NCBI GenBank assembly: GCA_016841945.1
Contig: JAENYC010000030.1
Coordinates: 1-40,819, forward strand
Direction of reading: 5' to 3'
Length of the DNA stretch: 40,819 nt
From: Haloplasma contractile
GTDB lineage: Bacteria > Bacillota_I > Bacilli_A > Haloplasmatales > Haloplasmataceae
The notes beneath the pieces were generated by a model that saw only the letters and a list, made by a program, of their open reading frames with translations, made no database searches and was not told the origin of the DNA. Made by a program: the position numbers and the translations under genes. This document shows positions 1,823 through 28,474 of this stretch, one piece after another; within the stretch, counting starts at the first letter, position 1, and every line of letters starts with the position of its first letter.

Positions 1823-3145
1823 ATGGAATTAAAAAAATCATATTATAATGAATTAATTAAAGAAAATGAAAGTGGAGAAAAGTTGATTTATAATTTCAAC
1901 ACTGGTGCATTTATATTAATGAATGAAAAAGCATATCAACTCATGGAAAATATTGAAATTTTAGAATTTAAGCAATTAGATGATGAAAGTATCGGATATT
2001 TAAAATTAATGAAAGAAAATGGATTAGTTGTTGAGAAAAAAATAGATGAGATTGAAATATTAGACTTTAAAGAAAAACTTGCAACATATGATAGTAATAG
2101 TTTAATATTAACAATTACACCTACAACAAATTGTAATATGAAATGTATTTATTGTTATGAAGCAAATAATAAAATACTTTCAAGCACAATGACAAAGGAA
2201 ATTCAGGATGCGATTGTTGAATTTGTTAAGAAAAAAATTAAGAATCTTTCTATTCTAAGTGTTGTATGGTATGGCGGGGAACCCCTTTTGGAAAAAGAAA
2301 TAATATATTATTTATCCCGAGAGTTTATTAAATTATCTGAACTGTATCATGTACAATACTCTGCATCTATGATTACAAATGGAGTCTTACTAGATTATAG
2401 CACTAGTGTATTCTTAAAAGAACAATGTAGGGTGAAATATGTTCAAATAACAATAGATGGTCTAAAAGAGTACCATGATAAACGAAGAATAATGAAAGAT
2501 GGTAGTCGTAGTTTTGATGTTATCATGGATAATATTGATAAAATAAAAGATATACTAAAAGTTACTATACGAGTTAATGTTGATCAAAATAATTTGAATC
2601 ATATTGAAAATTTTGTTTATTTTCTTATGAATGATAAAAAAATAGGGAATTCAGTTAATTTATATTTTGATAAAGTAAATGATTATACTGCAGCTTATAA
2701 TTGCGATATTTCAAGTTTTATCGGTCAAAAAGATTTGAATTCTTTATTAAAGAAAATTTATAGCAATATTGTGTATAACGGCAACAATAATTTAATATCT
2801 TTGGAGTCATATATCTCACCAAAAATTAAGAATTGTGGGGCAACTAATATAAACAATTACATAATAGACTCTGATGGATATATTTATAAATGTCTTACAT
2901 TAGTCGGAGTTAAGGAAGCTGCAATAGGTAAAATCACTGAAGAAATAGATGTGATAAAACATAAAAAATGGGTATTTCATGAATTAGACACAAAATGTAA
3001 AGTTTGCAAACAACGGCCACTGTGTCAAGGAGGATGCGTATTTAGGGAAATACAAAATAATGAAATGCATAGATGTAAATTTAATTCAGAAGATTATAAA
3101 TTTGCCCTCAATACAATCTATGAAATTGAAAGAGGAAATCTATGA
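1823..3145 (+). CDS. Radical SAM/SPASM peptide-modifying enzyme
   Basis: This 440-residue protein is a radical S-adenosylmethionine enzyme of the peptide-maturase type. Residues 1-85 form an N-terminal domain resembling the peptide-recognition region that precedes many RiPP radical SAM enzymes (YNFNTGAFILMNEKAYQL). The cluster motif CNMKCIYC gives C104, C108 and C111, and GGEP is at 151-154. The C-terminus carries a complete seven-cysteine SPASM domain: C338, C357, C392, C395, C401, C405 and C418. That pattern normally holds two extra iron-sulfur clusters. Such enzymes make thioether, C-C or epimerised bonds in ribosomal peptides; the reaction here is not known. It is the first gene of a five-gene operon and overlaps the next gene by 4 bases. 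The likely substrate is the small Cys-rich peptide at 7232. Confidence 0.9.
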   Translation: MELKKSYYNELIKENESGEKLIYNFNTGAFILMNEKAYQLMENIEILEFKQLDDESIGYLKLMKENGLVVEKKIDEIEILDFKEKLATYDSNSLILTITPTTNCNMKCIYCYEANNKILSSTMTKEIQDAIVEFVKKKIKNLSILSVVWYGGEPLLEKEIIYYLSREFIKLSELYHVQYSASMITNGVLLDYSTSVFLKEQCRVKYVQITIDGLKEYHDKRRIMKDGSRSFDVIMDNIDKIKDILKVTIRVNVDQNNLNHIENFVYFLMNDKKIGNSVNLYFDKVNDYTAAYNCDISSFIGQKDLNSLLKKIYSNIVYNGNNNLISLESYISPKIKNCGATNINNYIIDSDGYIYKCLTLVGVKEAAIGKITEEIDVIKHKKWVFHELDTKCKVCKQRPLCQGGCVFREIQNNEMHRCKFNSEDYKFALNTIYEIERGNL

Positions 3146-3843
3146 AAGTTTTGAATGAATCGAATAAATTAATAATTTATAGTATACAAGAAGACAATAA
3201 TTGTTATGAGGACATTATTAAATTTATAAAAAATCAATTAAAAAGATTAATTAACCAATATAATATAAAGTTAACTGAAACTCTAGAAATAATAATTTAC
3301 CCAGATATTATTTTGTTTCAAAGAACTAATAATATTAGTTTAGAGAAACCGTGGTTTGTAAGTAAAATTGAAGAAAATATAATAAAAATTGTATCACCGT
3401 TTAATCCAGGAACTATTCATAGTTATGAATCAATTTTGAAAATCTTTATTCATGAATTGATGAATATTCTTATTTTAAAATTGAATCCTAAAATCCCCAA
3501 TACGCATATGTGGTTTGTTGAAAGTTTATGTGTATATGAGGCTAATCTAAAAGAGCGTAGTCAGATTAATGCTAATCAGTTTTTACATTTAAAAGGTAAG
3601 TTTCTAAGTATTTTAAACTCTAAAAAAGCTGTTTATTATAACCATCTTGATATGGCATTTGTTTTCGTTGATTTCCTATATTCAAATCATAAACAAGATT
3701 TATTAATAGAAATAATTAATAATCCAAGTAAAATAATAGATATTATAAATAATAAAATAGATAATTTTGAAAATAAGATGTTTAACTTTTTGGTGGTAAA
3801 CTATCAATTAGAACAAGAATTAGGGGACCATTATTATGGTTAA
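3142..3843 (+). CDS. Peptidase MA-like protein with altered zinc motif (HELMN)
   Basis: This 233-residue protein resembles gluzincin metallopeptidases of the Peptidase_MA type: IIYPDIILF, then VSPFNPGTIHSYESILKIFI, a helix with H104-E105-L-M-N108, then WFVESLCVYEA with E127 as the expected third zinc ligand. The second histidine of HExxH is replaced by Asn108 (codon AAT), while the catalytic-base Glu and downstream Glu remain. It may therefore be a pseudo-peptidase that binds peptide, or an enzyme with unusual metal binding. No signal peptide or membrane segment is seen, so it is probably cytosolic. It overlaps the radical SAM genes on both sides (4 and 8 bases), so it is translationally coupled and likely acts on the same peptide. 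A leader-peptidase or leader-recognition role is inference. Confidence 0.7.
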   Translation: MKVLNESNKLIIYSIQEDNNCYEDIIKFIKNQLKRLINQYNIKLTETLEIIIYPDIILFQRTNNISLEKPWFVSKIEENIIKIVSPFNPGTIHSYESILKIFIHELMNILILKLNPKIPNTHMWFVESLCVYEANLKERSQINANQFLHLKGKFLSILNSKKAVYYNHLDMAFVFVDFLYSNHKQDLLIEIINNPSKIIDIINNKIDNFENKMFNFLVVNYQLEQELGDHYYG

Positions 3844-4744
3844 TATAGATACAATACTTTTGAAAGTAACAAATAAATGTAATGAAAAATGTGAATTCTG
3901 TTATATGAAGAAAGAAAAATCTCAAGAAATAGTTATAGAGGACTATTATAATTTATTTAAATCTTTTGAGAAGTTGGGTATTGAAATTGTTAATATATCA
4001 GGTGGTGAACCGTTAATGAGAGGAGATATAGGAGAAATTATTAAAATGCTTTCAAAATTAGGGATGTATTCAAGGCTAGCAACAAATGGAAAGTTATTAA
4101 ATAAGACTACCTTCATTAAATTACGTGATTCGGGTCTTTCCAATCTTCAAGTTAGTGTTGGAGATATGACTAATTTAATACAGGTTAATTCAATTTTAAA
4201 ATTGTTTTTAGAATTTAATGAAATTAAAAATAATTTGAAATTAGGAATTAATCTTATTACAAGTCACAATTTCTTTCAAACAAAGTATGAAAATATAAAT
4301 AATATATTGAATAATTTTAAAGTTGATTGGATAGATTTTTTACATCCTAAATTTGCGGGGAATTATGATTGGTATATAAAAAATAAAATGGATAAAGAGG
4401 ATATTCGTGCATTATCAAATTTAATTTTTGAAAAAAATATTAAAAATCATTCTTTTTCATGTGGTTATAATTTATATACAGCTTTAAATAATAACATTAT
4501 AAATTATGACTTGATAGAAAATAATTGTAATTTCCTTTCTTCACATATTCATTTTCTAGTGATATCATCTGATGGTAAAGTTTATCCTTGTCCATTTACA
4601 ATGACAAAAGATAATGAAATAGGAAATATATTAGATGAGGATATAGAGGTGATTATAGAGAAATATAGTATTATGAAATCTAAATTTACTAAATCTAAGC
4701 AAATAAACTTACCATGTATGCTTCGTACAAAAGAGATAAGTTAA
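3836..4744 (+). CDS. Second radical SAM enzyme with short C-terminal cluster domain
   Basis: This 302-residue radical SAM protein has CNEKCEFCY (C15, C19, C22) almost at its N-terminus and GGEP at 56-59. It lacks the recognition-like N-terminal domain of the first enzyme. The C-terminal part has four cysteines (C209, C231, C252, C294) around a SPASM-like strand VISSDGKVYPCPF. This fits a reduced SPASM or 'twitch' domain that would bind one auxiliary cluster. It starts 8 bases before the end of the peptidase-like gene. Two radical SAM enzymes in one small operon suggest two successive modifications of one peptide, or a modifying pair acting together. The reaction cannot be read from sequence. 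Confidence 0.87.
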   Translation: MVNIDTILLKVTNKCNEKCEFCYMKKEKSQEIVIEDYYNLFKSFEKLGIEIVNISGGEPLMRGDIGEIIKMLSKLGMYSRLATNGKLLNKTTFIKLRDSGLSNLQVSVGDMTNLIQVNSILKLFLEFNEIKNNLKLGINLITSHNFFQTKYENINNILNNFKVDWIDFLHPKFAGNYDWYIKNKMDKEDIRALSNLIFEKNIKNHSFSCGYNLYTALNNNIINYDLIENNCNFLSSHIHFLVISSDGKVYPCPFTMTKDNEIGNILDEDIEVIIEKYSIMKSKFTKSKQINLPCMLRTKEIS

Positions 4745-4772
4745 ATATTAATTGTGATAGGAGAGTCTAAAT

Positions 4773-5729
4773 ATGGGTAATTATATTTTGAAAGTTATTA
4801 ATTTAACAAAAATATATAAAACAAGAAGAGAGAATGAAATTAAAGCAGTAAATAATGTTTCTTTTAATATTAAAAATGGAGAAATTGTTGGCCTTTTAGG
4901 CCCAAATGGCGCTGGAAAAACTACAATTATAAAAATGATTTGTCGCTTAATTAATTCTACTAAAGGAAATATTCTCTATGAAAATGATATTAAACAAAAG
5001 AAAAGGTTAAATATGGCAAAAAATATAACTTGTGTACTAGAAGGCAATAGAAATGTATATTGGCGTTTAACTGTAAGAGAAAATCTAGAATTTTTGTCTA
5101 TTATTAAAGGTTATAACCCTAAAAAATTAAAAGAAAGAATAGATTATTATATTGATTTCTTTAATTTGCGAGACAAAGAACATGTTATTGCAGGTAAATT
5201 ATCACAAGGAATGAAACAAAAATTAAGTATTGCAGCATCTATGGTTCCCCCAACAAAAATTGTGTTATTAGATGAACCAACACTTGGATTGGATGTTAAA
5301 GCATCGTATGATATGAGAAAAATTTTAAAAAAAATTGCAGAGGAGGAAAATAGAACAATACTAATAACTACACATGATATGAAGGTAGTACAGAATGTTT
5401 GTAATCGTATCATTATAATCAATCAAGGTCAAATTATAGCAGATGATAAAATAAATAATCTATTACATTTATTTGAATTAAAGAATTATCATTTTTCAAT
5501 TGAAGGGTTTATTACAGATGAGCAAAGACAACTTCTTAATGATATACCGCATTTAGAAATTAAAGAAAATGATAAAAATACTGAAATCTCAGTTCATATC
5601 GATAAAATGAGTATATTTTATAGAATTGTAAGAGTATTAGAAAATGGAGGAAGTATAGTTAAATCTATCGAAAATTCAGAAATTGATTTTGAAAAAGCAT
5701 ATATTGAAATTTTAGGAGGGATTGTATAA
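4773..5729 (+). CDS. ABC transporter ATP-binding protein
   Basis: This 318-residue ATPase has Walker A GPNGAGKT (43-50), signature LSQGMKQK (143-150) and Walker B IVLLDEPT (163-170), followed by the H-loop region TTHD. It belongs to the one-domain ATPases that pair with ABC-2 permeases, as in bacteriocin export and self-immunity pumps. The C-terminal 90 residues form an extra domain of the type seen in drug or antibiotic exporters. The start ATG 4773 has GGAGAG upstream. It follows the second radical SAM gene by 28 bases and overlaps the permease by one base. It probably energises export of the modified peptide or immunity to it. Confidence 0.92.
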   Translation: MGNYILKVINLTKIYKTRRENEIKAVNNVSFNIKNGEIVGLLGPNGAGKTTIIKMICRLINSTKGNILYENDIKQKKRLNMAKNITCVLEGNRNVYWRLTVRENLEFLSIIKGYNPKKLKERIDYYIDFFNLRDKEHVIAGKLSQGMKQKLSIAASMVPPTKIVLLDEPTLGLDVKASYDMRKILKKIAEEENRTILITTHDMKVVQNVCNRIIIINQGQIIADDKINNLLHLFELKNYHFSIEGFITDEQRQLLNDIPHLEIKENDKNTEISVHIDKMSIFYRIVRVLENGGSIVKSIENSEIDFEKAYIEILGGIV

Positions 5730-6505
5730 TGGGAGGAAAGTGGTTATTACTTAAAGGATTTATCAAAAAAGAAAGAATTGAATTTTCTAGATATATTTTT
5801 GATACAATAGTAGGAATAATAGTGACCTTAGGATTGTTTTTACTTCTCTTTTATGGTATATCAAGTTTGGCTAATAATTATAATATAGGTACAACAAAAA
5901 GTGCACTAGTAGTAGGTTATGGATTGTTTATTTTATATATAGGAGCCTATAATTCTATAGCTGACACAATTATAACTGAAGGTAAAAATGGAACTTTAGA
6001 ACAACTATATATGTCAGCTTATCCATTTCGTTGGATTCTAATTATGAAAAATATTGCTTCAAGTATCCTTGGATTAATATTATTTGTATTTATTATTTTA
6101 ATCACAATGTTAATTACAGGAGTTTCATTAAATATAGATTTTTTTTCTGTTATACCCTTAGCTATTATTACAGCTCCATCTTTTTTAGGACTAGGCTTAA
6201 TTGCAGGTGGACTAGCCTTAGTTTTCAAAAAAGTTAATGGTCTTTTACAAATTCTTCAGTTCTCAATTTTGGGGTTTATCTCGTTGCCAATAAGTAAATC
6301 CTGGGTATTAAGGTTTTTACCAGGTACTTTAGGGACGAATATGATTCAAGATATAATGGTAAAAAGCAAAAATATATTTAGTTTTAATTTTATTACTTAT
6401 GTTGAACTAATAGGAATTGGATGTTTTTATCTAATAATTGGATCAGCTATTTATAATATATGTGAGAAAGTTGCAATGAATAAGGGAAGTATTGGGTATT
6501 ACTAA
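5729..6505 (+). CDS. ABC-2 type permease
   Basis: This 258-residue integral membrane protein has about six hydrophobic segments (around 20-45, 58-80, 104-130, 138-160, 170-190 and 225-245). The layout matches ABC-2 permeases that partner with the ATPase just upstream. The start ATG 5729 overlaps the ATPase stop region and has AGGAGGG a short distance upstream. It is the last gene of the operon proper. Its partner and the radical SAM genes suggest export of, or immunity to, the small peptide. Substrate is inferred from context only. Confidence 0.87.
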   Translation: MGGKWLLLKGFIKKERIEFSRYIFDTIVGIIVTLGLFLLLFYGISSLANNYNIGTTKSALVVGYGLFILYIGAYNSIADTIITEGKNGTLEQLYMSAYPFRWILIMKNIASSILGLILFVFIILITMLITGVSLNIDFFSVIPLAIITAPSFLGLGLIAGGLALVFKKVNGLLQILQFSILGFISLPISKSWVLRFLPGTLGTNMIQDIMVKSKNIFSFNFITYVELIGIGCFYLIIGSAIYNICEKVAMNKGSIGYY

Positions 6506-6579
6506 AAATAAACGAGGTACACTTTTTTATTTCTTAGGATTCTATCAAAAAGAAGTTGTAACGTTTCATTTTTAGGGTA

Positions 6580-7025
6580 AGAGTAACATTAAGTAGAGAA
6601 GTCCATCAATGGGACTTCTCCCTATACGAACCGTACGTGCGGATTTCCCGCATACGGCTCTAATCCCATGATTAATTTATTGAACCTACTTCGTTACACC
6701 TCATGTGCATAAATGAGTGCTGATATCTCATGTATACCTAGGAGGATATCTCATGCAAAGAATTCTGGTCCATTAATATACCAATGTCAGACTCGCCAAA
6801 CTCTAAGACTCCGCCATGCCCTATCTCTAGGTGTTGTCTGGGACGTATACAACCGTATCAGTACTTGGGACTTTATAGATTTCGTGGCTGAATTGTTTCA
6901 GGTTTCCCTTTTGGCTCGAATGCTTTCTTGTCTACGCTTACACTTAACATTACTGCTTCAGTGCAAGACTAGATAACAACCGTGGAGTTAGCTCTCTTTG
7001 TTGTGTGGGGGGGGATTCCACCGAC
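6580..7025 (-). other. Group II intron RNA without its reverse transcriptase ORF
   Basis: Read on the minus strand, 6660-6628 forms a classic group II domain V: GAGCCGTATGCGG, GAAA-type loop, CCGCACGTACGGTTC. It is followed by a domain VI-like hairpin with arms GAGAAGTCC and GGACTTCTC (6618-6593). Upstream on the same strand are domain I-like stretches such as AGAGAGCTAACTCCACGG and GATACGGTTGTATACGTCC. No reverse-transcriptase reading frame exists. The element is about 440 bases, so it is an ORF-less or internally deleted intron that would need a maturase in trans. The 5' and 3' ends are approximate because no clear GUGYG start was found. It lies antisense between the permease and the small peptide gene. 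Confidence 0.75.
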
Positions 7026-7156
7026 TATATATTAATAGCTTACAAATTACTTTTAAGTAAAATGAAATGTTTTACATTTACAGGACGCACAGTATAACAA
7101 AATTATAACTAAAAATTAATGGGACTACAACAATACTATACAGAAACAAATAAATC

Positions 7157-7183
7157 TCTAGAAATATCTAGGTATTTCTGGAT
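7157..7183 (+). promoter_or_regulatory. Inverted repeat upstream of the small peptide gene
   Basis: CTAGAAATA and TATTTCTGG form imperfect arms around TCTAGG, about 50 bases before the peptide start. It could be an operator or a leader hairpin. AT-rich DNA between it and the gene contains several possible -10 boxes, but no convincing -35, so the promoter cannot be fixed. Confidence 0.3.
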
Positions 7184-7231
7184 TTATATATATTAATTTA
7201 AATATATGTTAATAAAAGGAGGGGAAATTGA

Positions 7232-7327
7232 ATGAAAATAATTAGAGATGGAGACCAAGATTTGTCAAAAAGATACGATTGCTTTTGCAACCCTATTTGT
7301 AAATTAATTGTTCCAATACCTTGGTAA
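7232..7327 (+). CDS. Candidate RiPP precursor, 31-residue Cys-rich peptide
   Basis: A 31-codon gene starts at ATG 7232 with a strong ribosome site AGGAGGGG at 7217-7224 and ends at TAA 7325-7327. An intrinsic terminator follows at once, which supports a real gene. The N-terminal half is charged and polar (MKIIRDGDQDLSKR) and would act as a short leader. The C-terminal half, YDCFCNPICKLIVPIPW, has three cysteines close together and a hydrophobic Pro/Trp tail. This is the form expected for a substrate of radical SAM/SPASM enzymes that make cysteine crosslinks. It lies in the same orientation downstream of the two radical SAM genes and the exporter, separated by the antisense intron. I cannot assign it to a named peptide family. 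Short Cys-rich clostridial radical-SAM peptides are the nearest idea. Confidence 0.72.
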   Translation: MKIIRDGDQDLSKRYDCFCNPICKLIVPIPW

Positions 7328-7338
7328 TTTCATAGGGA

Positions 7339-7377
7339 AACCAAAAAGATCAAACTAGAATTTGGTCTTTTTTGGTT
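7339..7377 (+). terminator. Intrinsic terminator after the peptide gene
   Basis: Arms AACCAAAAAGATCAAA and TTTGGTCTTTTTTGGTT pair across a 6-base loop, with a U-rich second arm, 11 bases after the peptide stop. It ends a short transcript carrying only the peptide or closes the whole operon. Confidence 0.75.
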
Positions 7378-7427
7378 TAGAAAACGCCCAGTTATACTAA
7401 GGGTTCAATAAAACTTAAAATGCAAAA

Positions 7428-8275: not shown

Positions 8276-8610
8276 ATTGCGTAAAAGTTCATATCTACAT
8301 TAAAAACGCCCCCCCTTAACAAAAGGTGGGAATACTATTTCGCAAAATATTTATATTGCGTAATACTAGGTTTTCTTAACCTCAAACACACGTCGAGAGT
8401 GTCGTTTTGCTAGTAAGAAAGTAACCTATATAAGTAGTTTTTTTAAATTAAGGCTATAATTAAGACTTAAAATATGTTTCCTCATACAAGTAAGTATGGG
8501 GGACTTTTTTACTATGGGGGTCGTACTAGCAACACGATAACTACAGTTTTGCGTATTTGTATAGTATTATGCGCAATAGTATAGGGTTTTTAGTGAAAAC
8601 GACCCCCCCT
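8276..8610 (+). repeat. Non-coding repeat element, copy 1
   Basis: This stretch is a diverged direct copy of 15586-15870, with about 50 extra bases near 8362-8415. Shared blocks include ATTGCGTAAAAGTT at the start, TTTTGCTAGTAAG, TTTTGCGTATTTGTATAG, and GGGTTTTTAGTGAAAACGAC before a C-run at the end. It holds a conserved terminator-like hairpin (CCTCATAC/GTATGGGG, then T6, 8480-8510). Near its end are two TGCG(T/C)A-N-(T)TGTATAG-like units 20 bp apart (8550 and 8570). No protein is encoded. It lies about 135 bases before an hsdM fragment, as copy 2 lies before hsdR. It may be a regulatory or leader region, a small RNA, or a mobile repeat. Confidence 0.75.
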
Positions 8611-8745
8611 ATAGATTTATGAAGAATTGCCGTTGATAATATGCGTTATAACCAGTATAATTAAGAGTATATACTATACAAAAACAATACTATTGATATG
8701 AATATTAATAACCGCTATTTTAGAAATACAATTGGAGGAAAACGT

Positions 8746-9012
8746 ATGAATAAAGAAATGATATCTTTATCACAGTTAGAAAGATTTTTATTAGAAGCTG
8801 CTGATATACTAAGAGGTAAAATGGATGCTTCTGAGTTCAAAGAATTTATATTTGGAATGTTATTTTTAAAAAGGATGTCAGATGAATTTGATTTAAAGCG
8901 TAAGATTTTAGTTGAAAGAGATTATGCACATTTAAAAGAAGAACCTGAATTATTAAATAAAATTTTAGAAGATAAGACATCATATGGAGAAACCTTTTTC
9001 GTGCCAGTGAGG
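8746..9012 (+). pseudogene. hsdM 5' fragment (type I methyltransferase subunit)
   Basis: A strong ribosome site TTGGAGGAAAA precedes ATG 8746. The first 89 or so residues ([20 protein letters not shown], later [14 protein letters not shown]) match the N-terminal helical domain of HsdM. Around 9010 the similarity stops and the DNA becomes the end of an IS256-family element read from the other strand. The open frame runs on to 9111 only by chance. The methyltransferase motifs are missing, so no active enzyme can be made. It differs in sequence from the second hsdM at 18447, so it comes from another type I system. Confidence 0.78.
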
Positions 9013-9235
9013 GCTGTAGACTGGGGGTTATATACTTCAATGAAATCCTTTACTAATTGTTTTATTTTTGGGTCTATCTTCTTACGTGCCATTATTCCTA
9101 CTCCTAAATAATTTAACATCCACCATTATACTAAAAAAGATTGTGTAAGTCACTAGAGCAAGTAGGCGCCTATTTCTATTCCAAACTCACTTGGATGAAA
9201 TGACTCACTCTAACTATATTACACAATCTATTTTA
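9013..9235 (-). mobile_element. IS256-family insertion sequence end with truncated transposase
   Basis: On the minus strand, ATG 9092 starts [20 protein letters not shown], the usual N-terminus of mutator/IS256-family transposases. After about 25 codons it runs into the hsdM fragment. Upstream of it (9120-9235) is the IS end, where AGATTGTGTAA occurs at 9138-9148 with its inverted copy TTACACAATCT about 80 bases further on. Most of the transposase and the other end are absent, and hsdM does not resume on the far side. A deletion or rearrangement therefore followed insertion. It cannot transpose by itself. Confidence 0.7.
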
Positions 9236-9552: not shown

Positions 9553-9879
9553 CTATTCTTGTTTAATTTTTTTAATGACAAACCGATAATATCTTACCAT
9601 TAAATATGGCGCAATTACAATAGGTATCAAAAATACTTCGAGTTGAAAAGCCGATCCTAATCGAGCTCCGATTCTAGCGCCTTCATCAAATGATTTTTGA
9701 TTCAACCATTCACGGGAAAATAGAAATGAGGGTATAATACTAAATCCCCAAAGCGGTAAGAAGATATATAATAATATTTGTCCTAACTTGTTGGGATTGG
9801 GGTCTAAATAGATTAATAATACAATTACTGCTGCAAATAAAATTGAATTAATTAATGTAGTGATGGCTTGTCGTTTCAT
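9553..9879 (-). CDS. Small three-helix membrane protein, possible immunity protein
   Basis: This 108-residue protein starts at ATG 9879 with a strong site GAGGGGGAG. It has three hydrophobic segments (about 7-25, 33-51 and 80-97) and a basic C-terminus (RYYRFVIKKIKQE). It is the last gene of the minus-strand bacteriocin operon. Small membrane proteins at this place often protect the producer from its own bacteriocin, but nothing in the sequence itself proves this. No named family is recognised. Confidence 0.6.
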   Translation of the reverse strand: MKRQAITTLINSILFAAVIVLLIYLDPNPNKLGQILLYIFLPLWGFSIIPSFLFSREWLNQKSFDEGARIGARLGSAFQLEVFLIPIVIAPYLMVRYYRFVIKKIKQE

Positions 9880-9975
9880 TTTTTCTCCCCCTCTTAATCC
9901 TATTCGGCTGTACTAGTACAATTTACGACTAGAATCAGGTTTAATATATGAACAAGTTCTAATACCTATTTTATT

Positions 9976-10704
9976 CTAATTATTCGACTGCTTATCTTTA
10001 AAAAATCTTTCAACAATCGGAATAATTATTAAGCGACTTTTCACAATTTTTTCTGCTGCTTGATTAATGTCTTTGTTATTGAGAAAGTCAATAATCTCAA
10101 ACAAATATACCATTTCATTTTTCGATTTTGCCCATCTCGCAGTTTTTAATAAATAGCTCTTTTTCGCTATATATACTTCATGAATTTTTTTAAGTGCAGT
10201 ACTGTCATTATTAATGTAGTGAATTAGATAGAGTAGAAATATTGTGGATGAAAGATATCTTGCATTAGGTAGAAATTGTTTGTCGAGGTTAAATTTCTCC
10301 AAATATGTGATTGCTTGTGCTGGTTTATCTAATAATAATTCTAAATATCCCAAATAGTAAAGAATCATCTGGTTGATATTGTAAAAGCGATTAATCGAAG
10401 CAATTTTAAGTAAAAACTCTATGGCATCATTGTATTGTTTTAACTCAATGAAGTTGGCTACGTTTTTTTCAACTTTAGCTTTTCTAACAGCTTCTATTGA
10501 AAAGACGACGGTATTGGTAACTAGTAAAACTGAAATTATACAGAGCAGAATAATCCTTAACCATTGCGCCTCTTCGACGCTTTTTATGCCGATGTAAATA
10601 TAATAGATTATATATATTACTAAAAATGATGCTATCAAAATGAGATTAATAGTTTTATATGTTTTTAGCGTTGTTTTGTTGAAGTATTTAACATCAATCA
10701 TCAT
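9976..10704 (-). CDS. Membrane-anchored helical-repeat protein of the bacteriocin operon
   Basis: This 242-residue protein begins at ATG 10704 with AGGAGA upstream. Two transmembrane segments (about 20-40 and 49-71) anchor a cytoplasmic domain. That domain looks like TPR-type alpha-helical repeats: AIEFLLKIASINRFYNINQM, YLGYLELLLDKPAQAITYLE. The gene starts 17 bases after the end of the precursor frame, so it belongs to the same transcript. An immunity or regulatory role is plausible from its place next to the precursor. The family is not recognised. Confidence 0.6.
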   Translation of the reverse strand: MMIDVKYFNKTTLKTYKTINLILIASFLVIYIIYYIYIGIKSVEEAQWLRIILLCIISVLLVTNTVVFSIEAVRKAKVEKNVANFIELKQYNDAIEFLLKIASINRFYNINQMILYYLGYLELLLDKPAQAITYLEKFNLDKQFLPNARYLSSTIFLLYLIHYINNDSTALKKIHEVYIAKKSYLLKTARWAKSKNEMVYLFEIIDFLNNKDINQAAEKIVKSRLIIIPIVERFFKDKQSNN

Positions 10705-10720
10705 ACTCTATTCTCCTATC

Positions 10721-11262
10721 CTATGCAGTTACTAAACCGAAAGCGTATCCTGAAGCCGTAGCTGCTGCTGCACCACCTAAACCTCCACCGAAACCGCCTA
10801 GGAATGATGCAATTTTTTGGCCAATATCAATATTATAATTAATTTTAGCAAATGGAATCCAAATATCAACTAGCGTTACTTTAGATGGGCCACTAGTTCC
10901 GTAAATCATATTATTTACTGTTTTAGAAAGAGCATAACCTGTAATACCACCAATTGCTGTTGAGATGAGTGCACCTGCCCATCCGGCCATTGCTCCAATC
11001 TTAGTAAATTTTGCAGTGATATATCCTACAACAAATCCGGTGACCACACCTGTGGCAAGGCCACTAACTGCGCCACCAATCGTGCAAGTAATTGTTGGAA
11101 TCGTCCTCCTCCATCAACATATTCCATTTCATCATAAGACATATCTGTTGCTGAAACTGGAACAATTAATTCACTATCAACGGCTTGCTTAGCACTTCGG
11201 TTCATTTTACTAATCGCAAATGAACTACCAAACACTTCTTGATTCATTCTCAAAATATTCAA
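10721..11262 (-). pseudogene. Double-glycine bacteriocin-like precursor, frameshifted
   Basis: From a TTG start at 11262 (AAAGGGG upstream; internal ATG at 11247) the frame encodes a leader ending SYDEMEYVDGGG, a textbook double-glycine cleavage site for C39 peptidases. Right after it the frame runs out of register and stops at 11026. The other frame, open from this point to 10721, reads RTIPTITCTIGGAVSGLATG and continues for about 127 residues. These are very hydrophobic, rich in Gly and Ala, with GxxxG patterns and ending GGLGGAAAATASGYAFGLVT. A -1 shift at GGAGGAGGACG would join leader and core. As read, the gene is broken by one missing base; this may be real or a sequence error. It is unusually large for a class II bacteriocin. 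Confidence 0.72.
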
Positions 11263-11293
11263 AATAAAAGACCCCTTTCTATTATTTTAAATT

Positions 11294-11322
11294 ATAATAG
11301 CATATATTATATAAAATGTCAA
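11294..11322 (-). promoter_or_regulatory. Sigma-A-like promoter of the bacteriocin precursor
   Basis: On the minus strand TTGACA (11322-11317) and TATTAT (11299-11294) are separated by exactly 17 bases, about 30 bases before the precursor start. This gives the precursor and its downstream genes a promoter separate from that of the transporter. Confidence 0.75.
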
Positions 11323-11328
11323 TTATTA

Positions 11329-12411
11329 CTAGTTAAATCCGATCTTTTTTAGAAACCAATTCAGCCAAGTAGTTTCTTCATACTTGATTCTCACTTCACC
11401 GGTTTGCCCGACAACTAGATTAATATCTGATAATTTGATTTCACTGGGTTTGATTTCTAGTTTGTAATAGACTTTACCTTCAGACATGATACTATCTGCA
11501 GAAATATGACTTATCTTACCCTTTAATGTCCCATATTCAGTCTGTGGTAGTCCGGACACAACAATATCCACTGTAAGATTATCTTCTAAATATACCCTGC
11601 TTTTGGCATCAATATAAACTTCGATAAGGGCATTATCTTTGGTCAATTTTTCATTAATTGTTCCTATTGGATCATTACCAATCACCATGCCATCACTCAA
11701 TAAAACTGAATAATTGATATAACCTGAGTTTCCTGCATAAATTTTATATGAATTCAAGGTTAACTCATTTGCTTCTTTTTGTCCCTCAACACTAATGTAT
11801 TCATATTCGTACTGTTTTTTTTGATTATAGTATTGAGATAGGAACTGGTTTGCGATTTTAATCCTTTCTTCCCTAAGTTCACTCATTGTTTTATCGACGA
11901 GGGAGCCTGTTACATCTGTCTTTTTTGTTTCAACATTGGCTATTGCTTCTAAAAACGAATCGTATTGGATATGAAAATCTCCATCTTCAAATGGGTTTTG
12001 ATTATTTTCAATATTATCATAATCATAAGCTTTAATCGATTCAATAAATAAATCTAAATCATCTACTTGGTCTTTTAAAAACATCAATTTATAATCTAAC
12101 GCAATGATTTGTGCATCGACTTGGAGGGTATCTAACTCTAAGATTAAATCGCCCTTTTCAACATGTTCTCCGTTATGTTTGTCGATCGTCTTAATTTTTC
12201 CCCCAGTTGGACTGGTGATATATGTTTTGTTCGTGGTTGATAAAACACCAACGGCCTTAACAACTTCTGTCTTCTTGACAAAATGAGCTGAAATGATAAT
12301 TCCGATTAATAACACCAAAGTGATACCAATAATCATAAACCCCATTTTGGGATCCTTTTTATGATACTGCATAAGGCTACTTTTCAGTTCATGTAACTTA
12401 TACTCCTTCAT
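11329..12411 (-). CDS. HlyD-like membrane fusion/accessory protein for bacteriocin export
   Basis: This 360-residue protein has one N-terminal transmembrane helix (about 22-44), then a biotinyl-lipoyl-like half motif (TSPTGGKIKTIDKHNGEHVE, then KGDLILELD). A coiled-coil stretch (about 140-215) follows, then the second lipoyl half and a beta-barrel region (YVDAKS-like strand, KGKISHIS). This is the layout of the HlyD/LcnD accessory family that works with C39 ABC transporters. The gene overlaps the preceding one by 14 bases on the minus strand. It would link the transporter to the outside in a Gram-positive cell wall. Confidence 0.85.
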   Translation of the reverse strand: MKEYKLHELKSSLMQYHKKDPKMGFMIIGITLVLLIGIIISAHFVKKTEVVKAVGVLSTTNKTYITSPTGGKIKTIDKHNGEHVEKGDLILELDTLQVDAQIIALDYKLMFLKDQVDDLDLFIESIKAYDYDNIENNQNPFEDGDFHIQYDSFLEAIANVETKKTDVTGSLVDKTMSELREERIKIANQFLSQYYNQKKQYEYEYISVEGQKEANELTLNSYKIYAGNSGYINYSVLLSDGMVIGNDPIGTINEKLTKDNALIEVYIDAKSRVYLEDNLTVDIVVSGLPQTEYGTLKGKISHISADSIMSEGKVYYKLEIKPSEIKLSDINLVVGQTGEVRIKYEETTWLNWFLKKIGFN

Positions 12412-12880
12412 GTTTTATCCTCCCAACAATCGGAATAAATGTATCAATGATTGAGTAATTTTCATTTCTCTCTTTAAAAACGGAGTATGATTCTGAACCT
12501 AAAACAATGCTGTTTTCATAAGCATAAACTTGCATCTTACCTTGTGCCAAACTTGAAAATTGTTCATTGCCTTCAAATCTTGCAAATAAACAAGGTCCCA
12601 CTTTTAGTTCTTTATGAAATTTAAATGGTACAAGTACTTTAGGATGATTACTTTGGGTCTGAATAATCACAGTAATTATTAATTTAGAATTATCATCGTC
12701 TTCGATATACGTTTTAATAATAAGTGGTCCAAAAGTTTCAATATTATGAACTTTCAAGTAACTTTCAAACATATGCATCTTTTTATCTAGGGAGTCTTCA
12801 TCATCAAAGGAAAACTCTCGCATTAATACATTTTTTAGTTTTAATACTTTATTTTCTTCAATTAATATTTCCTTATTCAT
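12398..12880 (-). CDS. GyrI-like/DUF5085-like small protein in bacteriocin operon
   Basis: This 160-residue soluble protein starts at ATG 12880 with GAGGTG upstream and overlaps the transporter gene by 8 bases. Its C-terminal half (VPFKFHKELKVGPCLFARFE, later YSIIDTFIPIVG) resembles the effector-binding fold of the AraC/GyrI type or DUF5085. I cannot place it with certainty. Its position between transporter and HlyD-like genes is tight, so it should act with them. It might bind a small ligand or the precursor; this is inference. Confidence 0.55.
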   Translation of the reverse strand: MNKEILIEENKVLKLKNVLMREFSFDDEDSLDKKMHMFESYLKVHNIETFGPLIIKTYIEDDDNSKLIITVIIQTQSNHPKVLVPFKFHKELKVGPCLFARFEGNEQFSSLAQGKMQVYAYENSIVLGSESYSVFKERNENYSIIDTFIPIVGRIKHEGV

Positions 12881-15095
12881 AAGTCACCTCATCAATATTT
12901 GAACCAAAATCTTTTGGTTCTTCATTTTCTATCTCAATTATATTGATTTCATTATTTTGTGTTTTCCACAATTTTGAATAGAACCCTTCTTTTAACAATA
13001 ATTCCTCATGATTACCAATTTCCACAAGTTGTCCACGGTCCAAAACTAAAATACGATCACAGGATTTGATTGAAGATAATCGATGAGCAATGAAAATCAT
13101 CGTTTGTTTAAAAGTACTATTGAAGATATTTTGATAAATTTTATTTTCACTGAGAAAATCCAAGTTCGATGTTGCTTCATCAAGAATTAACAAATAGAAG
13201 TCTTTAGAAAGGGAACGCGCCAAAGCAAGCCTTTGTCGCTCTCCTCCTGACAAATTGGCTCCTGCTTCTTCTAAGTAAGTGTCTATCCCTGCCGGAAGGT
13301 TACTTACAAAATTGGCATCAGCTATACTAAGTGCTGTCCGGATATCCTTTCTTGAAACATTTGGGTTAACTAACTTAATATTGTCATAAACGCTACCACT
13401 AAATAACTCAACATTTTGATTAACATAAGCAATTTTGTTTCGTAATGATGCCAAATCAATATCATTAAGATTTAATTCATCAATTAGGATATTGCCTTCT
13501 TTAACTTTCCACAGACCTAATAGTAGTTTAGCTATCGTCGTTTTTCCACTTCCAGATTCACCAACAATGGCGATTTTTTTTCCTGCCTGAATTTCAAAGT
13601 TAATATTTTTTAAGACTGGGGCTCGACTACCATAACTAAATGTGACATTCTCAAATTTAATCTTACCTTCAATATTAGTGATAACTTCACCCTCAATTTC
13701 TTGTTCACGATCAACATCAAAGATTTCGGATAATCTTTTCATCGCAATTTGCGATTCCTGTATTTCTAATTGTAGACCAATCATTCGACCAATAGGATCC
13801 ATGAACATTCCTGCCATGGAGGTAAATGTCATCAATGTCCCAAGGGTTAACTCTCCCCCCATTACTGCAGTAGCTCCAACCCATAACATCACGATACTAA
13901 TAGTTGCACTTATTAATGCCGAAACCGATTGTTGAGTAATTGAAAGTATCCCCACTCGATAACCTGTTTTAATGGTATCTATATAGTTGTTTTCAATTTT
14001 TTCCATTGCGTTATTTTCCATAGCATTAGACTTAACCGTTTCGATACCTCTAAGTGATTCAATGACAGAAGAATTTAATATTGCGCTTTGTTCCATTTGT
14101 CGTAAATTAATCTCTTTGTAAGGTTTTCTAAAGATATAAACTAACAAGATATTGATCATAGTTGCGATTAAAACAATTAAGAATAGTTTCGGACTCATTG
14201 TAAACAATACAATACCAATGACAATGATCATCACTATATCAATTAAAATCGATAAAGCAATACCTGTAAAAACATTTTTGATTGTTTGGGCATCACTAAA
14301 TCTCGTTAAAATGTCACCAGTTTTTCTTGTGCCAAAAAAATTCATTGGCGAGGAAAAAATATGATTATAATATCCTAAAGTTAATGGAATATCAATTTTA
14401 ATGGATAATCTCAATAATATATAAGACCGAACTGCACTCAGTAAAATATTAACAATTCCCACTGCCAAAAATCCTAATGCAAACACTGTCAATTGATTTT
14501 TTAAATTATAGGGCAAGATTTCATCAATTAAAATCTTATTAAAATAATTTGAAATAATACCAAGGACCGTTAAAATTACGCTGCCGATTATTGCCCAAAT
14601 AAAATATCTTTTATGTGGGGCCAATAATTTTACGAAGCGAGAAAACATGCTTTTTTCTTTTAGTTTCCCCGTCACAAATTCATCATTTGGTTTTAAAAGG
14701 ATAATTACACCATCAAAGGTTTTCGCAAACTCATCTTTTGTAATTACTTTTTTATTGATGGATGGATCATTTACATATAAATTATTATTCTTAATCTTAT
14801 ATACGACAATAAAATGCGACATTTGCTCCTCCGTTATAATATGAGCAATCAAGGGCATAGTCATTTTTTCTGTCATCAATGAGTTTAGATCTAATCTGAC
14901 CGCTTTAGCATCAAAACCTAATTGATGTGCGCCTGTAACGAGACCTTTTACATTAGTTCCTTTAATATCCGTTCCTAAAATATCTCTTAATTTGGTAATA
15001 GAGATTTCTCTTCCATAATACATTGAAATCGATGCTAAACAAGCCGCAGCACAATCTGTAGCATCATGTTGTTTGACATAAATACTTTTCCCCAT
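12873..15095 (-). CDS. Peptidase-containing ABC transporter (C39) for a GG-leader bacteriocin
   Basis: This 740-residue protein cleaves double-glycine leaders and exports the mature peptide. The N-terminal C39 protease domain (1-135) has DCAAACL with catalytic Cys15, His94 in QMSHFIVVYK and Asp110 in VNDPS. Five to six transmembrane helices follow (about 165-430). The C-terminal ATPase has Walker A GESGSGKTT (512-520), signature LSGGER (615-620), Walker B LLILDE (635-640) and H-loop His671. All catalytic parts are intact. It is the first gene of the minus-strand operon, with AAGGAGAG before the start. Its natural substrate is likely the adjacent frameshifted precursor. Confidence 0.93.
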   Translation of the reverse strand: MGKSIYVKQHDATDCAAACLASISMYYGREISITKLRDILGTDIKGTNVKGLVTGAHQLGFDAKAVRLDLNSLMTEKMTMPLIAHIITEEQMSHFIVVYKIKNNNLYVNDPSINKKVITKDEFAKTFDGVIILLKPNDEFVTGKLKEKSMFSRFVKLLAPHKRYFIWAIIGSVILTVLGIISNYFNKILIDEILPYNLKNQLTVFALGFLAVGIVNILLSAVRSYILLRLSIKIDIPLTLGYYNHIFSSPMNFFGTRKTGDILTRFSDAQTIKNVFTGIALSILIDIVMIIVIGIVLFTMSPKLFLIVLIATMINILLVYIFRKPYKEINLRQMEQSAILNSSVIESLRGIETVKSNAMENNAMEKIENNYIDTIKTGYRVGILSITQQSVSALISATISIVMLWVGATAVMGGELTLGTLMTFTSMAGMFMDPIGRMIGLQLEIQESQIAMKRLSEIFDVDREQEIEGEVITNIEGKIKFENVTFSYGSRAPVLKNINFEIQAGKKIAIVGESGSGKTTIAKLLLGLWKVKEGNILIDELNLNDIDLASLRNKIAYVNQNVELFSGSVYDNIKLVNPNVSRKDIRTALSIADANFVSNLPAGIDTYLEEAGANLSGGERQRLALARSLSKDFYLLILDEATSNLDFLSENKIYQNIFNSTFKQTMIFIAHRLSSIKSCDRILVLDRGQLVEIGNHEELLLKEGFYSKLWKTQNNEINIIEIENEEPKDFGSNIDEVTYE

Positions 15096-15249: not shown

Positions 15250-15585
15250 CTATATATAAATAATATTTAATTAAAAAAGGCTTGGTTAATCTCTCATCAT
15301 CAAAACTGATAGATTTATGGTTGACATTAACAATTGTTAGAATATCTTTATAGATATTAAATTTTTTTGAATGCTTATATATGTTAAGTGACTAAAAAGT
15401 TGTTAAAGAAAAAATAATGAATTGGGTAAACATAAAATAATTTAAGAATATTTATATTTTGATTACAATTATTAAAAGTGATAATCCTTCGTTGTTATTT
15501 ATTAACAACTCAATTTAAAGGTAAATAATATGATTGAATTTTAAGGATTAAAAGAAAGTCTTAATGTATAATAGGTCAAATAAAA
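15250..15585. other. Gene-free AT-rich spacer
   Basis: No reading frame with a ribosome site, no clear hairpin terminator and no RNA gene could be recognised between the transporter promoter and the repeat element. Confidence 0.5.
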
Positions 15586-15870
15586 ATTGCGTAAAAGTTT
15601 AAAAATCTAAAAAAACGACCCCCTTAACAAAAGTGGGCGGTACATCTTTACGCAAAACTATTTATTTTGCTAGTAAGGAAATAGTGTTATATATAAGGTT
15701 TTTTAAATATAAGGCACTTAATTGAAGATTATAATATGTTCCCTCATACCGAGAGTATGGGCGCATTTTTTATTTAGGGGGTCGGAATAGCTATACGATA
15801 ACCACAGTTTTGCGTATTTGTATAGTATTCTGCGTAATTGTATAGGGTTTTTAGTGAAAACGACCCCCCT
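15586..15870 (+). repeat. Non-coding repeat element, copy 2
   Basis: This is the shorter copy of the element at 8276-8610, in the same orientation. It keeps a terminator-like hairpin CCTCATAC/GTATGGG followed by a T-run (15742-15772) and two TGCGTA-N-TTGTATAG units 20 bases apart (15811 and 15831). The octamer CGACCCCC occurs twice, with an inverted GGGGGTCG between (about 15606, 15777 and 15861). It ends about 175 bases before hsdR. The 20-base spacing equals two helical turns and suggests a protein-binding site. Function is unknown. Confidence 0.75.
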
Positions 15871-16045
15871 AAAAATTTTAGAAGTTAATATCAATGAACT
15901 TAAATTTTATCATTTATACACCTCTAATAACACTGTAAGGTTTTCTTTAATTTTCGTTAAGAAATGTGCTATAATGTAATTATATTATAAAATAAGAACT
16001 GTATTAAATTAAAAATATTAGGTGCAAGGGGAAAGGAAGGAGACC

Positions 16046-18418
16046 ATGGGAAAGAGACATTTATCTGAAGAAGATATTAAAGCAAGATATATAACACCAG
16101 CGATCACTGATGCTGGATGGGATATTAAGAAACAGGTACGATTGGAATATGCATTTACTGCAGGTCGGATTATCCTACGTGGGAATGTTACTGTTAGAGG
16201 GAAGAAGAAACGTGCGGATTATGTTCTTTTTTATAAAAGTAATTTTCCTTTGGCAGTTATTGAAGCGAAAGATAATAACCATCCAATTGGGGCCGGTTTA
16301 CAACAAGCTATTAGTTATGCAAAAGCATTAGATATTTATTATGTTTATGCTTCAAATGGTGATGGCTTTGTAGAGCAAAACTTAATTACTGGTGAAGTAA
16401 GAGAGTTAAAACTGAATGAATTTCCATCACCAGATGAGTTATATAGTCGCTATTTAAACGATAAGGATATCAACGTCACTGAAGAAAAAGTAATGCTAGA
16501 GCCTTATTACTATATTCCTGACTATAAGACGCCAAGGTATTATCAAAGGGTTGCAATCAATAGAACGGTTGATGCAGTTGCTAAAGGGAAGAATCGAGTG
16601 CTTTTAGTCAGTGCCACTGGTACGGGTAAAACATTTATGACTTTTCAAATAATTTATAGATTGTGGAAATCAGGAATTAAAAAGAAGATTTTATTTTTAG
16701 CTGACAGAAATATTTTAATCGACCAAACAATCTCTGGTGATTTTAAACCCTTTAGTGGTAAAATGACTAAAGTAACAAACAAGAAACTTGATAGTTCATA
16801 TGAAATTTATTTAGCACTTTATCAACAACTTACTGGAGACGAAGGTGAAGAAACTTTCCGTCAATTCCAACCGAACTTCTTTGATTTGATTGTGATTGAT
16901 GAGTGTCATAGAGGAAGTGCTAAGGAAGAATCTGCATGGAGAAAGGTATTAGATTACTTCTCATCAGCAACACATGTTGGATGTACAGCAACACCGATTG
17001 AAACAAAAGAAGCATCAAGCTTCACTTATTTTGGTGAGCCTATTTATGAATATTCTTTGAAGCAAGGAATTGATGATGGGTTCTTAGCCCCTTATAAAGT
17101 GATTCGAATCGGTTTAGATAAGGACTTAGAAGGTTACCGACCAGAAGCTGGTAAAGTTGATAAGCACGGATATGAAATTGAAGATAGAGAATACAATGTG
17201 AAAGATTATGATCGTTCGTTAGTTATTGATGATCGAACAAAAGTTGTAGCTAGAAAGATTACAGAATTCTTAAAGAAAACAAATCGATTCAGTAAAACAA
17301 TTGTATTTTGTGTGGATGTAGAACACGCAGAACGAATGAGACAAGCACTTATTAATGAAAACAAAGATTTATATGCTGAAAATGATCGGTACATCATGCG
17401 GATAACTGGCGATAATGATGAAGGTAAAGCACAACTAGAAAATTTCATTGATGAAGAGAGTACCTATCCTGTCATCGCAGTTACTAGTGAATTAATGACC
17501 ACAGGTGTGGATGCAAAAATGTGTAAACTTATTGTGTTAGATAATACGTTTGGTGAGCATGGAATGACTAAATTCAAGCAGATTATTGGTCGTGGAACAA
17601 GACTTCTAGAAGAGTATGGTAAAACGTACTTCACCATTATGGATTTCCGTAATGCTAGCCGATTATTTGCAGACCCAGCCTTTGATGGTAGACCAGAAGT
17701 GGTTATTGACCTAGATGAAAATGATCCAGTTGATGAACCAGAATCGGTAATGGAAGCAAATGATGAAGATTTTGGACATGACGATGGTGAAGTTCATGAA
17801 GATAATGAAGATTATATCATTGGTGACGACGAATCATTCGATGATGACGATAAACCGAGAAAGTATTATGTTCATGATGTAATGGTTAAGGTATTATCAG
17901 AACGTGTTCAATATGTCGATAAGGATGGAAAATTAATTACTGAGAGTTTAATAGACTATACAAAGAAAAATATCTTAGAGCAATATGCTAAATTAGATGA
18001 TTTCTTAAGAACATGGACAGAGGCGGAGAAAAAACAAGCGATTATCGATGAATTACAAGATAGTGGTGTGCTTTTAGATGCAGTTAAAGAGGAACTAGGT
18101 AAAACAGAACTCGATGATTTTGATTTGATTTGTCATTTAGCCTATGATAAACCACCACTAACTAAAAGAGAGCGAGCAGAGAATGTAAAGAAACGTCATT
18201 ACTTATATAAATATTCCGATGTTGCTCAAAAAGTAATTGAAGCACTCCTTGACAAATATGCCAATGATGGTATAAAAGAGATTGAAGATACAAAGGTACT
18301 TCAGCTTAAGGAGTTTGCTAAAATTGGTAGTCCAATGAAAATTGTTAAAGCCTTTGGAGGCAAAAAAGCATATTTAAAGGCAGTGCAAGAACTAGAAAAT
18401 GAGATTTATTACGCTTAA
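16046..18418 (+). CDS. hsdR: Type I restriction enzyme, R subunit
   Basis: This 790-residue HsdR is the motor and nuclease of a type I restriction-modification complex; it translocates and cuts unmethylated DNA. The start ATG 16046 has GGAAGGAG directly upstream; an earlier GTG at 16022 lies before that site. The nuclease motif is RADYVLF (Asp58) with VIEAKD (Glu73, Lys75). The helicase part has Walker A ATGTGKT (190-196), DECH (285-288), GCTATPIE and a late QIIGRGTRL motif. An acidic linker (about 570-615) precedes the C-terminal HsdM-binding region. The gene is intact. The order R-M-S follows, with hsdM 28 bases downstream. Confidence 0.95.
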   Translation: MGKRHLSEEDIKARYITPAITDAGWDIKKQVRLEYAFTAGRIILRGNVTVRGKKKRADYVLFYKSNFPLAVIEAKDNNHPIGAGLQQAISYAKALDIYYVYASNGDGFVEQNLITGEVRELKLNEFPSPDELYSRYLNDKDINVTEEKVMLEPYYYIPDYKTPRYYQRVAINRTVDAVAKGKNRVLLVSATGTGKTFMTFQIIYRLWKSGIKKKILFLADRNILIDQTISGDFKPFSGKMTKVTNKKLDSSYEIYLALYQQLTGDEGEETFRQFQPNFFDLIVIDECHRGSAKEESAWRKVLDYFSSATHVGCTATPIETKEASSFTYFGEPIYEYSLKQGIDDGFLAPYKVIRIGLDKDLEGYRPEAGKVDKHGYEIEDREYNVKDYDRSLVIDDRTKVVARKITEFLKKTNRFSKTIVFCVDVEHAERMRQALINENKDLYAENDRYIMRITGDNDEGKAQLENFIDEESTYPVIAVTSELMTTGVDAKMCKLIVLDNTFGEHGMTKFKQIIGRGTRLLEEYGKTYFTIMDFRNASRLFADPAFDGRPEVVIDLDENDPVDEPESVMEANDEDFGHDDGEVHEDNEDYIIGDDESFDDDDKPRKYYVHDVMVKVLSERVQYVDKDGKLITESLIDYTKKNILEQYAKLDDFLRTWTEAEKKQAIIDELQDSGVLLDAVKEELGKTELDDFDLICHLAYDKPPLTKRERAENVKKRHYLYKYSDVAQKVIEALLDKYANDGIKEIEDTKVLQLKEFAKIGSPMKIVKAFGGKKAYLKAVQELENEIYYA

Positions 18419-18446
18419 AACAAAATAATAAAGGCAGGTAAGGTAT

Positions 18447-19915: not shown

Positions 19916-19916
19916 G

Positions 19917-28226: not shown

Positions 28227-28474
28227 TAATGAATTAAATAATAAAATGTTATAAATTTATTGATATATCTTGATATTTTACACATTAATTATTGCGTAAA
28301 TGTTATATTCTGAAAATAAAAGGAATTAGAAATACCTAGATATATCAATAAAAAATAATGATTTAGTGGAATTTAATAATATCTAAATACCTATTGAAAA
28401 CAGCAAAAAGTATAGTTTTAATAGGTTTTTTATTGCATTTTTGTTTAATCATAACGCAGAAAGGAGAATGAGCG
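28227..28474. other. AT-rich gene-free spacer
   Basis: No gene was recognised between the GC-rich island and the HTH/zinc gene. One ATTGCGTAAA motif (about 28291) and AGAAATACCTAGATAT (28328-28343) occur. They may be binding sites, but nothing supports this further. Confidence 0.4.

What the first reader, a model, noticed from the sequence alone, without database searches (positions are those of the whole stretch)
1823..7327. Radical-SAM peptide cluster with an easily overlooked 31-residue Cys-rich precursor
Seen: two radical SAM genes, a peptidase-like gene and an ABC pair in one tightly coupled operon. Downstream is a 31-codon gene with a strong ribosome site, the tail YDCFCNPICKLIVPIPW and its own terminator. 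Known: SPASM radical SAM enzymes commonly crosslink Cys-containing peptides. Inference: the small gene is the substrate. The combination of a full seven-Cys SPASM enzyme, a short radical SAM enzyme and an altered peptidase does not match the Skf or Yyd arrangements I know.
Basis: partly seen in the sequence, partly recalled or inferred. Interest (0 to 1): 0.85.

Follow-up and report, generated by a model that had tools for sequence, protein, structure and literature searches.

The report
Tiny precursor of radical-SAM modified peptide
A bacterium carries a small gene cluster that very probably makes a chemically cross-linked peptide from a 31-amino-acid precursor that is easily overlooked; it is a new combination of known kinds of parts (two radical-SAM enzymes and a damaged-looking peptidase) rather than a new kind of system.

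Summary
In detail: a coupled operon (seven-Cys SPASM radical SAM, peptidase-like protein, short radical SAM, ABC ATPase, permease; 1823-6505), then a 31-codon ORF (7232-7327) with an AAGGAGG ribosome site and a terminator. Only 0.4% of shuffles of the downstream region give such an ORF. The peptide gene has its own operator-like 22-bp dyad, shared at similar spacing with two other genes of the bacterial family, so it looks real and separately transcribed. New support for the precursor reading: its N-terminus (MKIIR) resembles small ORFs beside related maturases (MKFIRKP, MKVIRNV, MRIIKNG, and a 20-aa MKLIGKSG in the closest relative). None of 505 SD-bearing control ORFs scores as well, but a locus-level test is only borderline (p=0.07) and a Clo7bot profile does not find the peptide. 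The peptidase-like protein is a gluzincin relative whose HExxH has become HELMN. Closest systems are Clo7bot and thuricin CD; membership fails for both. No homologous operon was found. Verdict: probable RiPP cluster, substrate assignment about 0.8, new variant of a known kind.

The parts
1823..3145 (+). rSAM1: radical SAM/SPASM peptide maturase, 440 aa, seven SPASM Cys
   Evidence: best NCBIfam TIGR04334 (Clo7bot maturase) 245 bits, below its cut-off of 600
3142..3843 (+). P2: gluzincin-like protein, 233 aa, HExxH replaced by HELMN (residues 104-108); probably no longer a zinc peptidase
   Evidence: BLASTP 3e-9 to a HEFVH protein of another genome, weak match to the HEFIH protein next to a Clo7bot maturase, alignment
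3836..4744 (+). rSAM2: short radical SAM enzyme, 302 aa, twitch-like C-terminus, no N-terminal domain
   Evidence: SPASM 25.5 bits over cut-off 21.5; MoaA-like core
4773..5729 (+). ABC transporter ATPase, DrrA-like
5729..6505 (+). ABC-2 type permease
   Evidence: (weak ABC2_membrane_3 match, 25.5 bits below cut-off 31.6) and position after the ATPase
6588..7090 (-). group II intron remnant, without intron-encoded protein, between operon and peptide gene
   Evidence: Rfam RF00029 and RF02005; GTGCG 5' end at 7090; 80-86% identical pieces in a relative
7159..7180 (.). 22-bp dyad TAGAAATATCTAGGTATTTCTG, operator-like, 51 nt before the peptide start
   Evidence: four places in the genome, none for the reversed control; same spacing before an alcohol dehydrogenase gene and a 23-codon ORF in the family
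7216..7222 (+). Shine-Dalgarno AAGGAGG of the peptide gene
7232..7327 (+). 31-aa precursor peptide MKIIRDGDQDLSKR-YDCFCNPICKLIVPIPW (proposed leader - proposed core; Cys 17, 19, 23)
7348..7373 (+). intrinsic terminator of the peptide gene
   Evidence: z = -2.96 for 7322-7390

Best explanation
This is a RiPP cluster. The 31-aa peptide is made from its own regulated promoter. Its first 14 or so residues (MKIIRDGDQDLSKR) act as a mini-leader, recognised through an MK-hydrophobic-I-[KR] start by the N-terminal domain of rSAM1. rSAM1, with one SAM cluster and two auxiliary clusters, makes one to three Cys thioether links in YDCFCNPICKLIVPIPW; N20-P-I-C23 is an NxxC arrangement like the Cys-Asn link of NxxcA. 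rSAM2, with its twitch end, helps as a partner of rSAM1 or adds a second modification. P2, a gluzincin that lost a zinc ligand, serves as a binding or scaffold protein rather than as the leader peptidase. The ABC pair exports the product or protects the producer. Shown: gene content, motifs, SD, terminator, dyad, N-terminal resemblance. Inferred: substrate identity, chemistry, roles of rSAM2, P2 and transporter.
For: rSAM1 matches many RiPP maturase families, best Clo7bot, and all seven SPASM Cys are present. The peptide ORF is rare by chance, has the promoter region of a regulated gene and a terminator. Its N-terminus scores above all 505 SD-bearing control ORFs with a score trained without it, and resembles ORFs directly beside related maturases, including the closest one. 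The maturase plus small gluzincin pair recurs in a Clo7bot locus. A full-SPASM plus twitch pair acts jointly in thuricin CD (PMC12093266).
Against: The peptide gene is separated from the operon by an intron remnant and has its own promoter. Locus-level enrichment of the N-terminal motif is only 7 of 23 against 2 of 23 (p = 0.07), one of the seven being disrupted by a transposase gene. A Clo7bot peptide profile does not find the ORF. MKII[KR][ND]G starts occur in phage small ORFs with no radical SAM gene nearby. No homologous operon is known to show Cys conservation. The rSAM2 and P2 roles rest on analogy.
Confidence: 0.62

Rival explanations
1. The 31-aa ORF is a real small gene (a regulatory or toxin-like peptide) but not the substrate; the true precursor lies elsewhere in the genome or was lost when the intron entered and decayed.
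For: Own promoter region shared with unrelated genes; intron remnant between operon and ORF; maturases can act on distant substrates (general knowledge).
Against: No other SD-bearing Cys ORF beside the operon; N-terminus fits ORFs beside related maturases; three Cys in 31 residues.
Confidence: 0.17
2. The operon is a decaying, non-functional mobile-element cargo: lost zinc site in P2, intron remnant, serine recombinase next to it.
For: HELMN, intron remnant, recombinase at 163-1608, no match to P2 in the other genomes of the family.
Against: All five ORFs are intact, with coupled starts and stops and preserved radical SAM and SPASM Cys; the peptide keeps SD and terminator.
Confidence: 0.1
3. 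P2 is an active metallopeptidase with an unusual HExxN site and removes the leader after K13-R14 (a variant of the best explanation).
For: HE and the downstream Glu (WFVES against WLNEG) are kept in the alignment with the HEFIH homologue; a dibasic KR precedes the proposed core.
Against: The second His of HExxH is a zinc ligand in known gluzincins (general knowledge).
Confidence: 0.15

Closest known systems
Clo7bot system (TIGR04334 maturase CtpM with Clo7bot Cys-rich peptides), Paraclostridium plasmid locus L005
   Same: Maturase 32-33% identical over its length; the gene overlaps a gene for a small gluzincin-like protein; peptides start MKFI[KR]KP with a first Cys at residue 16, against MKIIR and Cys17 here
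   Different: Maturase scores 245 bits against cut-off 600; peptides of 41-53 aa in tandem with 5-8 Cys against one of 31 aa with 3; intact HEFIH; no second radical SAM gene in that locus; peptide profile does not match
Thuricin CD (TrnC/TrnD), two-enzyme sactipeptide system
   Same: One enzyme with seven-Cys SPASM and one with truncated twitch; small Cys peptide substrate (PMC12093266)
   Different: TrnD has an N-terminal RRE-like domain, rSAM2 begins at the radical SAM core; two precursors there, one here; direct sequence comparison with TrnC/TrnD not made
Ranthipeptide NxxcA (Streptococcus orisratti)
   Same: A thioether between Cys23 and Asn20 there (PMC8326336); the window peptide has N20-P-I-C23
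   Different: Maturase relationship not tested; two further Cys here; resemblance of motif only
Sarcina sp. JB2 plasmid p8 locus (L003)
   Same: Closest rSAM1 relative found (35-36%); an unannotated 20-codon ORF MKLIGKSGLEVDSICGVQIG with SD GAGGTGA stands 63 nt before the enzyme gene
   Different: No second radical SAM gene and no gluzincin gene; an MFS transporter instead of ABC; one Cys

Membership tests
Radical-SAM (SPASM) RiPP cluster | Radical SAM CX3CX2C and SPASM Cys motif in the maturase | tested here: met
Radical-SAM (SPASM) RiPP cluster | Small precursor ORF with leader and Cys core in the cluster | tested here: met
   identity as substrate inferred
Radical-SAM (SPASM) RiPP cluster | RRE-type N-terminal domain in the maturase | tested here: inconclusive
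   profile of rSAM1 relatives aligns from residue 4 with the solved SPASM enzyme 8vpo; no fold of rSAM1 made
Radical-SAM (SPASM) RiPP cluster | Modified product | not testable with these tools
   needs mass spectrometry
Clo7bot system | Maturase over the TIGR04334 cut-off | tested here: not met
   245.5 bits, cut-off 600
Clo7bot system | Clo7bot-type Cys-rich peptide | tested here: not met
   profile from nine Clo7bot peptides does not list the ORF at E up to 20; only the first five residues resemble
Thuricin CD-like sactipeptide system | Seven-Cys SPASM enzyme together with a twitch enzyme | tested here: met
   against PMC12093266; by Cys pattern only
Thuricin CD-like sactipeptide system | RRE-like N-terminal domain in the twitch enzyme | tested here: not met
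   rSAM2 CX3CX2C starts at residue 15; TrnD has Cys109/113 there
Thuricin CD-like sactipeptide system | Two precursor peptides | tested here: not met
   one candidate ORF only
Ranthipeptide of PapB type | PapB family maturase and CX3D repeats in the precursor | tested here: not met
   151 bits, cut-off 340; no CX3D in the peptide; CX3D from general knowledge
Peptidase_MA_2 (PF13485) for P2 | Profile match and HExxH | tested here: not met
   no Pfam match, HELMN; relationship only through a homologue
Skf or Yyd cluster | Their gene sets (general knowledge: SkfA-H; YydF-J) | tested here: not met
   gene content; SkfB similarity only generic

The most novel reading that the evidence does not exclude
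A three-protein modification complex (SPASM maturase, twitch radical SAM enzyme without N-terminal domain, catalytically dead gluzincin as peptide holder) acts on a very short precursor with a leader of about 14 residues, and related maturases use equally tiny, mostly unannotated precursors recognised by an MK-hydrophobic-I-[KR] start.
Probability: 0.25. Interest if true: 0.68.

Novelty: new variant of a known kind. Interest (0 to 1): 0.5.

Why it matters
If right, the shared start of these peptides is a handle for finding precursors of 20-40 codons that annotation misses, such as the unannotated 20-codon ORF in front of the closest relative. The set also offers a compact test of why some clusters need a second, truncated radical SAM enzyme, and of what a peptidase-like protein without its zinc site does in peptide maturation.

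Tried and rejected
Scan of 84,980 species genomes with rSAM2 found no relative, and with rSAM1 one weak and irrelevant one; both use exact 8-residue words from one protein, so even moderately distant relatives can be missed. P2 gave no match in plasmids or viral contigs, and apart from itself only weak matches in 395 genomes of the class. A viral-contig search with a broad rSAM1 profile gave mostly generic SPASM enzymes. AlphaFold of P2 from a single sequence was poor, pLDDT 41; not relied on, and no fold search was run. A Clo7bot peptide profile does not find the 31-aa ORF, so I do not call it a Clo7bot peptide. A 43-codon Cys ORF upstream of the Sarcina enzyme was first suspected but has no SD; the 20-codon ORF replaced it. 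The Thermus 33-codon ORF with a matching start runs into a transposase gene, only its first 21 codons matching as unique sequence, so it counts for little. MKII[KR][ND]G with an SD in viral contigs: 16 hits, none near a radical SAM gene, so the motif alone is not diagnostic. Searches of rSAM2 relatives in the class gave only generic enzymes up to 36% over part of the length. Whole-genome download was not available. Literature searches for Clo7bot and for MKFIKKP returned nothing. The rSAM1 tree is a quick one with long branches and is used only for the nearest neighbour.

Full report
What is there. The window is one contig of a 3.43-Mb genome. From 1823 to 6505 five genes lie head to tail, three of the four junctions overlapping: a 440-aa radical SAM enzyme with a complete seven-Cys SPASM motif (rSAM1), a 233-aa peptidase-like protein (P2), a 302-aa radical SAM enzyme with a truncated, twitch-like SPASM end (rSAM2), an ABC ATPase and a permease. 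At 7232-7327 lies a 31-codon ORF, MKIIRDGDQDLSKRYDCFCNPICKLIVPIPW, with AAGGAGG nine bases before the ATG and an intrinsic terminator behind.

Is the small ORF more than chance? Of all ORFs of 20-70 codons in the window, only one other has an SD match of seven or more, a 65-aa ORF at the left end of the prophage. In dinucleotide shuffles of the 2.2-kb region downstream of the operon, 5% give any ORF with such an SD and 0.4% one with three or more Cys. The criterion was set after seeing the ORF. All share a 22-bp dyad (TAGAAATAYCTAGRTATTTCTA) about 51-53 nt before a start codon. The dyad occurs at four places in the genome, at none for the reversed control pattern. So the ORF appears to have the promoter region of a regulated gene.

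Between permease and peptide gene lies a group II intron remnant on the minus strand (Rfam hits 6588-6662 and 6799-7019), with a GTGCG 5' end at 7090. It is about 500 nt long and has no room for the usual intron protein. Pieces 80-86% identical occur in a relative. The peptide gene is therefore a separate transcription unit, which weakens the operon argument for the substrate and makes other evidence necessary.

Relatives of rSAM1 and P2. The best NCBIfam match of rSAM1 is TIGR04334, the Clo7bot maturase, at 245 bits against a cut-off of 600: a relative, not a member. The nearest sequence found is a radical SAM gene on Sarcina plasmid p8 (35-36%). In a Paraclostridium Clo7bot locus the maturase gene overlaps a gene for a small HEFIH protein, the same pairing as rSAM1 and P2; P2 resembles that protein only weakly. 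P2 matches a HEFVH protein of another genome at BLASTP 3e-9, with HELMN in place of the zinc motif. P2 is therefore a gluzincin relative that has probably lost zinc binding.

Link between peptide and enzyme. I listed small ORFs with an SD next to rSAM1 relatives. Several start alike: MKFI[KR]KP (Clo7bot), MKVIRNV (40 aa), MRVIKRP (45 aa), MRIIKNGSDVLDQADCLTINCC (37 aa, faecal scaffold), and, directly in front of the closest relative, an unannotated 20-codon ORF MKLIGKSGLEVDSICGVQIG. A score trained on seven such starts without the window ranks the window peptide second of 367 small ORFs in the window and above all 505 SD-bearing small ORFs from other AT-rich loci. Without the SD condition 16 of 5083 control ORFs score as well, about 0.3%. 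The limits are plain. The training starts were chosen by eye. Counted by locus the enrichment is 7 of 23 against 2 of 23 on the opposite strand, p = 0.07, and one of the seven is disrupted. A full Clo7bot profile does not find the peptide. A similar start occurs in small phage proteins with no radical SAM gene nearby. I read this as moderate support and put the substrate assignment at about 0.8.

How it probably works (inference). The N-terminal domain of rSAM1 holds the leader of about 14 residues; rSAM1 forms thioethers from Cys17, 19 or 23. N20-P-I-C23 recalls the Cys23-Asn20 link of NxxcA (PMC8326336). The enzyme pair resembles thuricin CD, where a full SPASM enzyme (TrnC) needs a twitch partner (TrnD) whose own radical chemistry is not essential (PMC12093266); here, however, rSAM2 has no N-terminal domain. 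P2 may hold the peptide. The ABC pair exports the product or protects the cell.

Distribution. No homologous operon was found: no P2 match in the seven other genomes held of the family, none of the weak P2 hits in 395 genomes of the class next to an rSAM1 hit (one genome has both, on different contigs), none in scans of species genomes, plasmids and viral contigs within the limits of those searches. The taxonomic name of the host could not be obtained.

Verdict.

Noticed in passing
window 9553-15095, minus strand: A second peptide-export locus: C39-peptidase ABC transporter (over the TIGR01193 cut-off), HlyD-like protein and a glycine-rich hydrophobic 108-aa protein (10721-11047) that looks like a bacteriocin precursor or immunity protein.
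   Followed up: partly
window 7159-7180 and 28327-28348: 22-bp palindrome TAGAAATAYCTAGRTATTTCTA, four places in the genome, two of them in this window (the second in the prophage); in a related genome it stands 51 nt before an alcohol dehydrogenase gene. Probably an operator; its regulator is unknown.
   Followed up: partly
window 8276-8610 and 15583-15884: An intergenic element repeated many times in this genome and in several genomes of the family (70-91% identity, often on contig C61), standing before an hsdM fragment (8698-9111) and before hsdR in the window; no Rfam match.
   Followed up: partly
window 8698-9111: Duplicated N-terminal fragment of hsdM, ending in frame-shifted sequence, 7 kb before the type I restriction genes at 16022-21365.
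   Followed up: no
L003:2352-2414 (Sarcina sp. JB2 plasmid p8): Unannotated 20-codon ORF MKLIGKSGLEVDSICGVQIG with SD and hairpin, directly before a SPASM radical SAM gene: a likely overlooked precursor.
   Followed up: yes
L144:684-797 (faecal scaffold MT839674.1): 37-codon ORF MRIIKNGSDVLDQADCLTINCCSGAVGAFPDEVEDEL directly before a radical SAM gene and an ABC transporter gene, on a human faecal scaffold filed as phage.
   Followed up: partly
own genome C61:9688-9757, minus strand (L162): A 23-codon ORF MYGDIIAFDQYGFGGDYFMVSTS behind the same dyad and spacing as the 31-aa peptide gene; function unknown.
   Followed up: no
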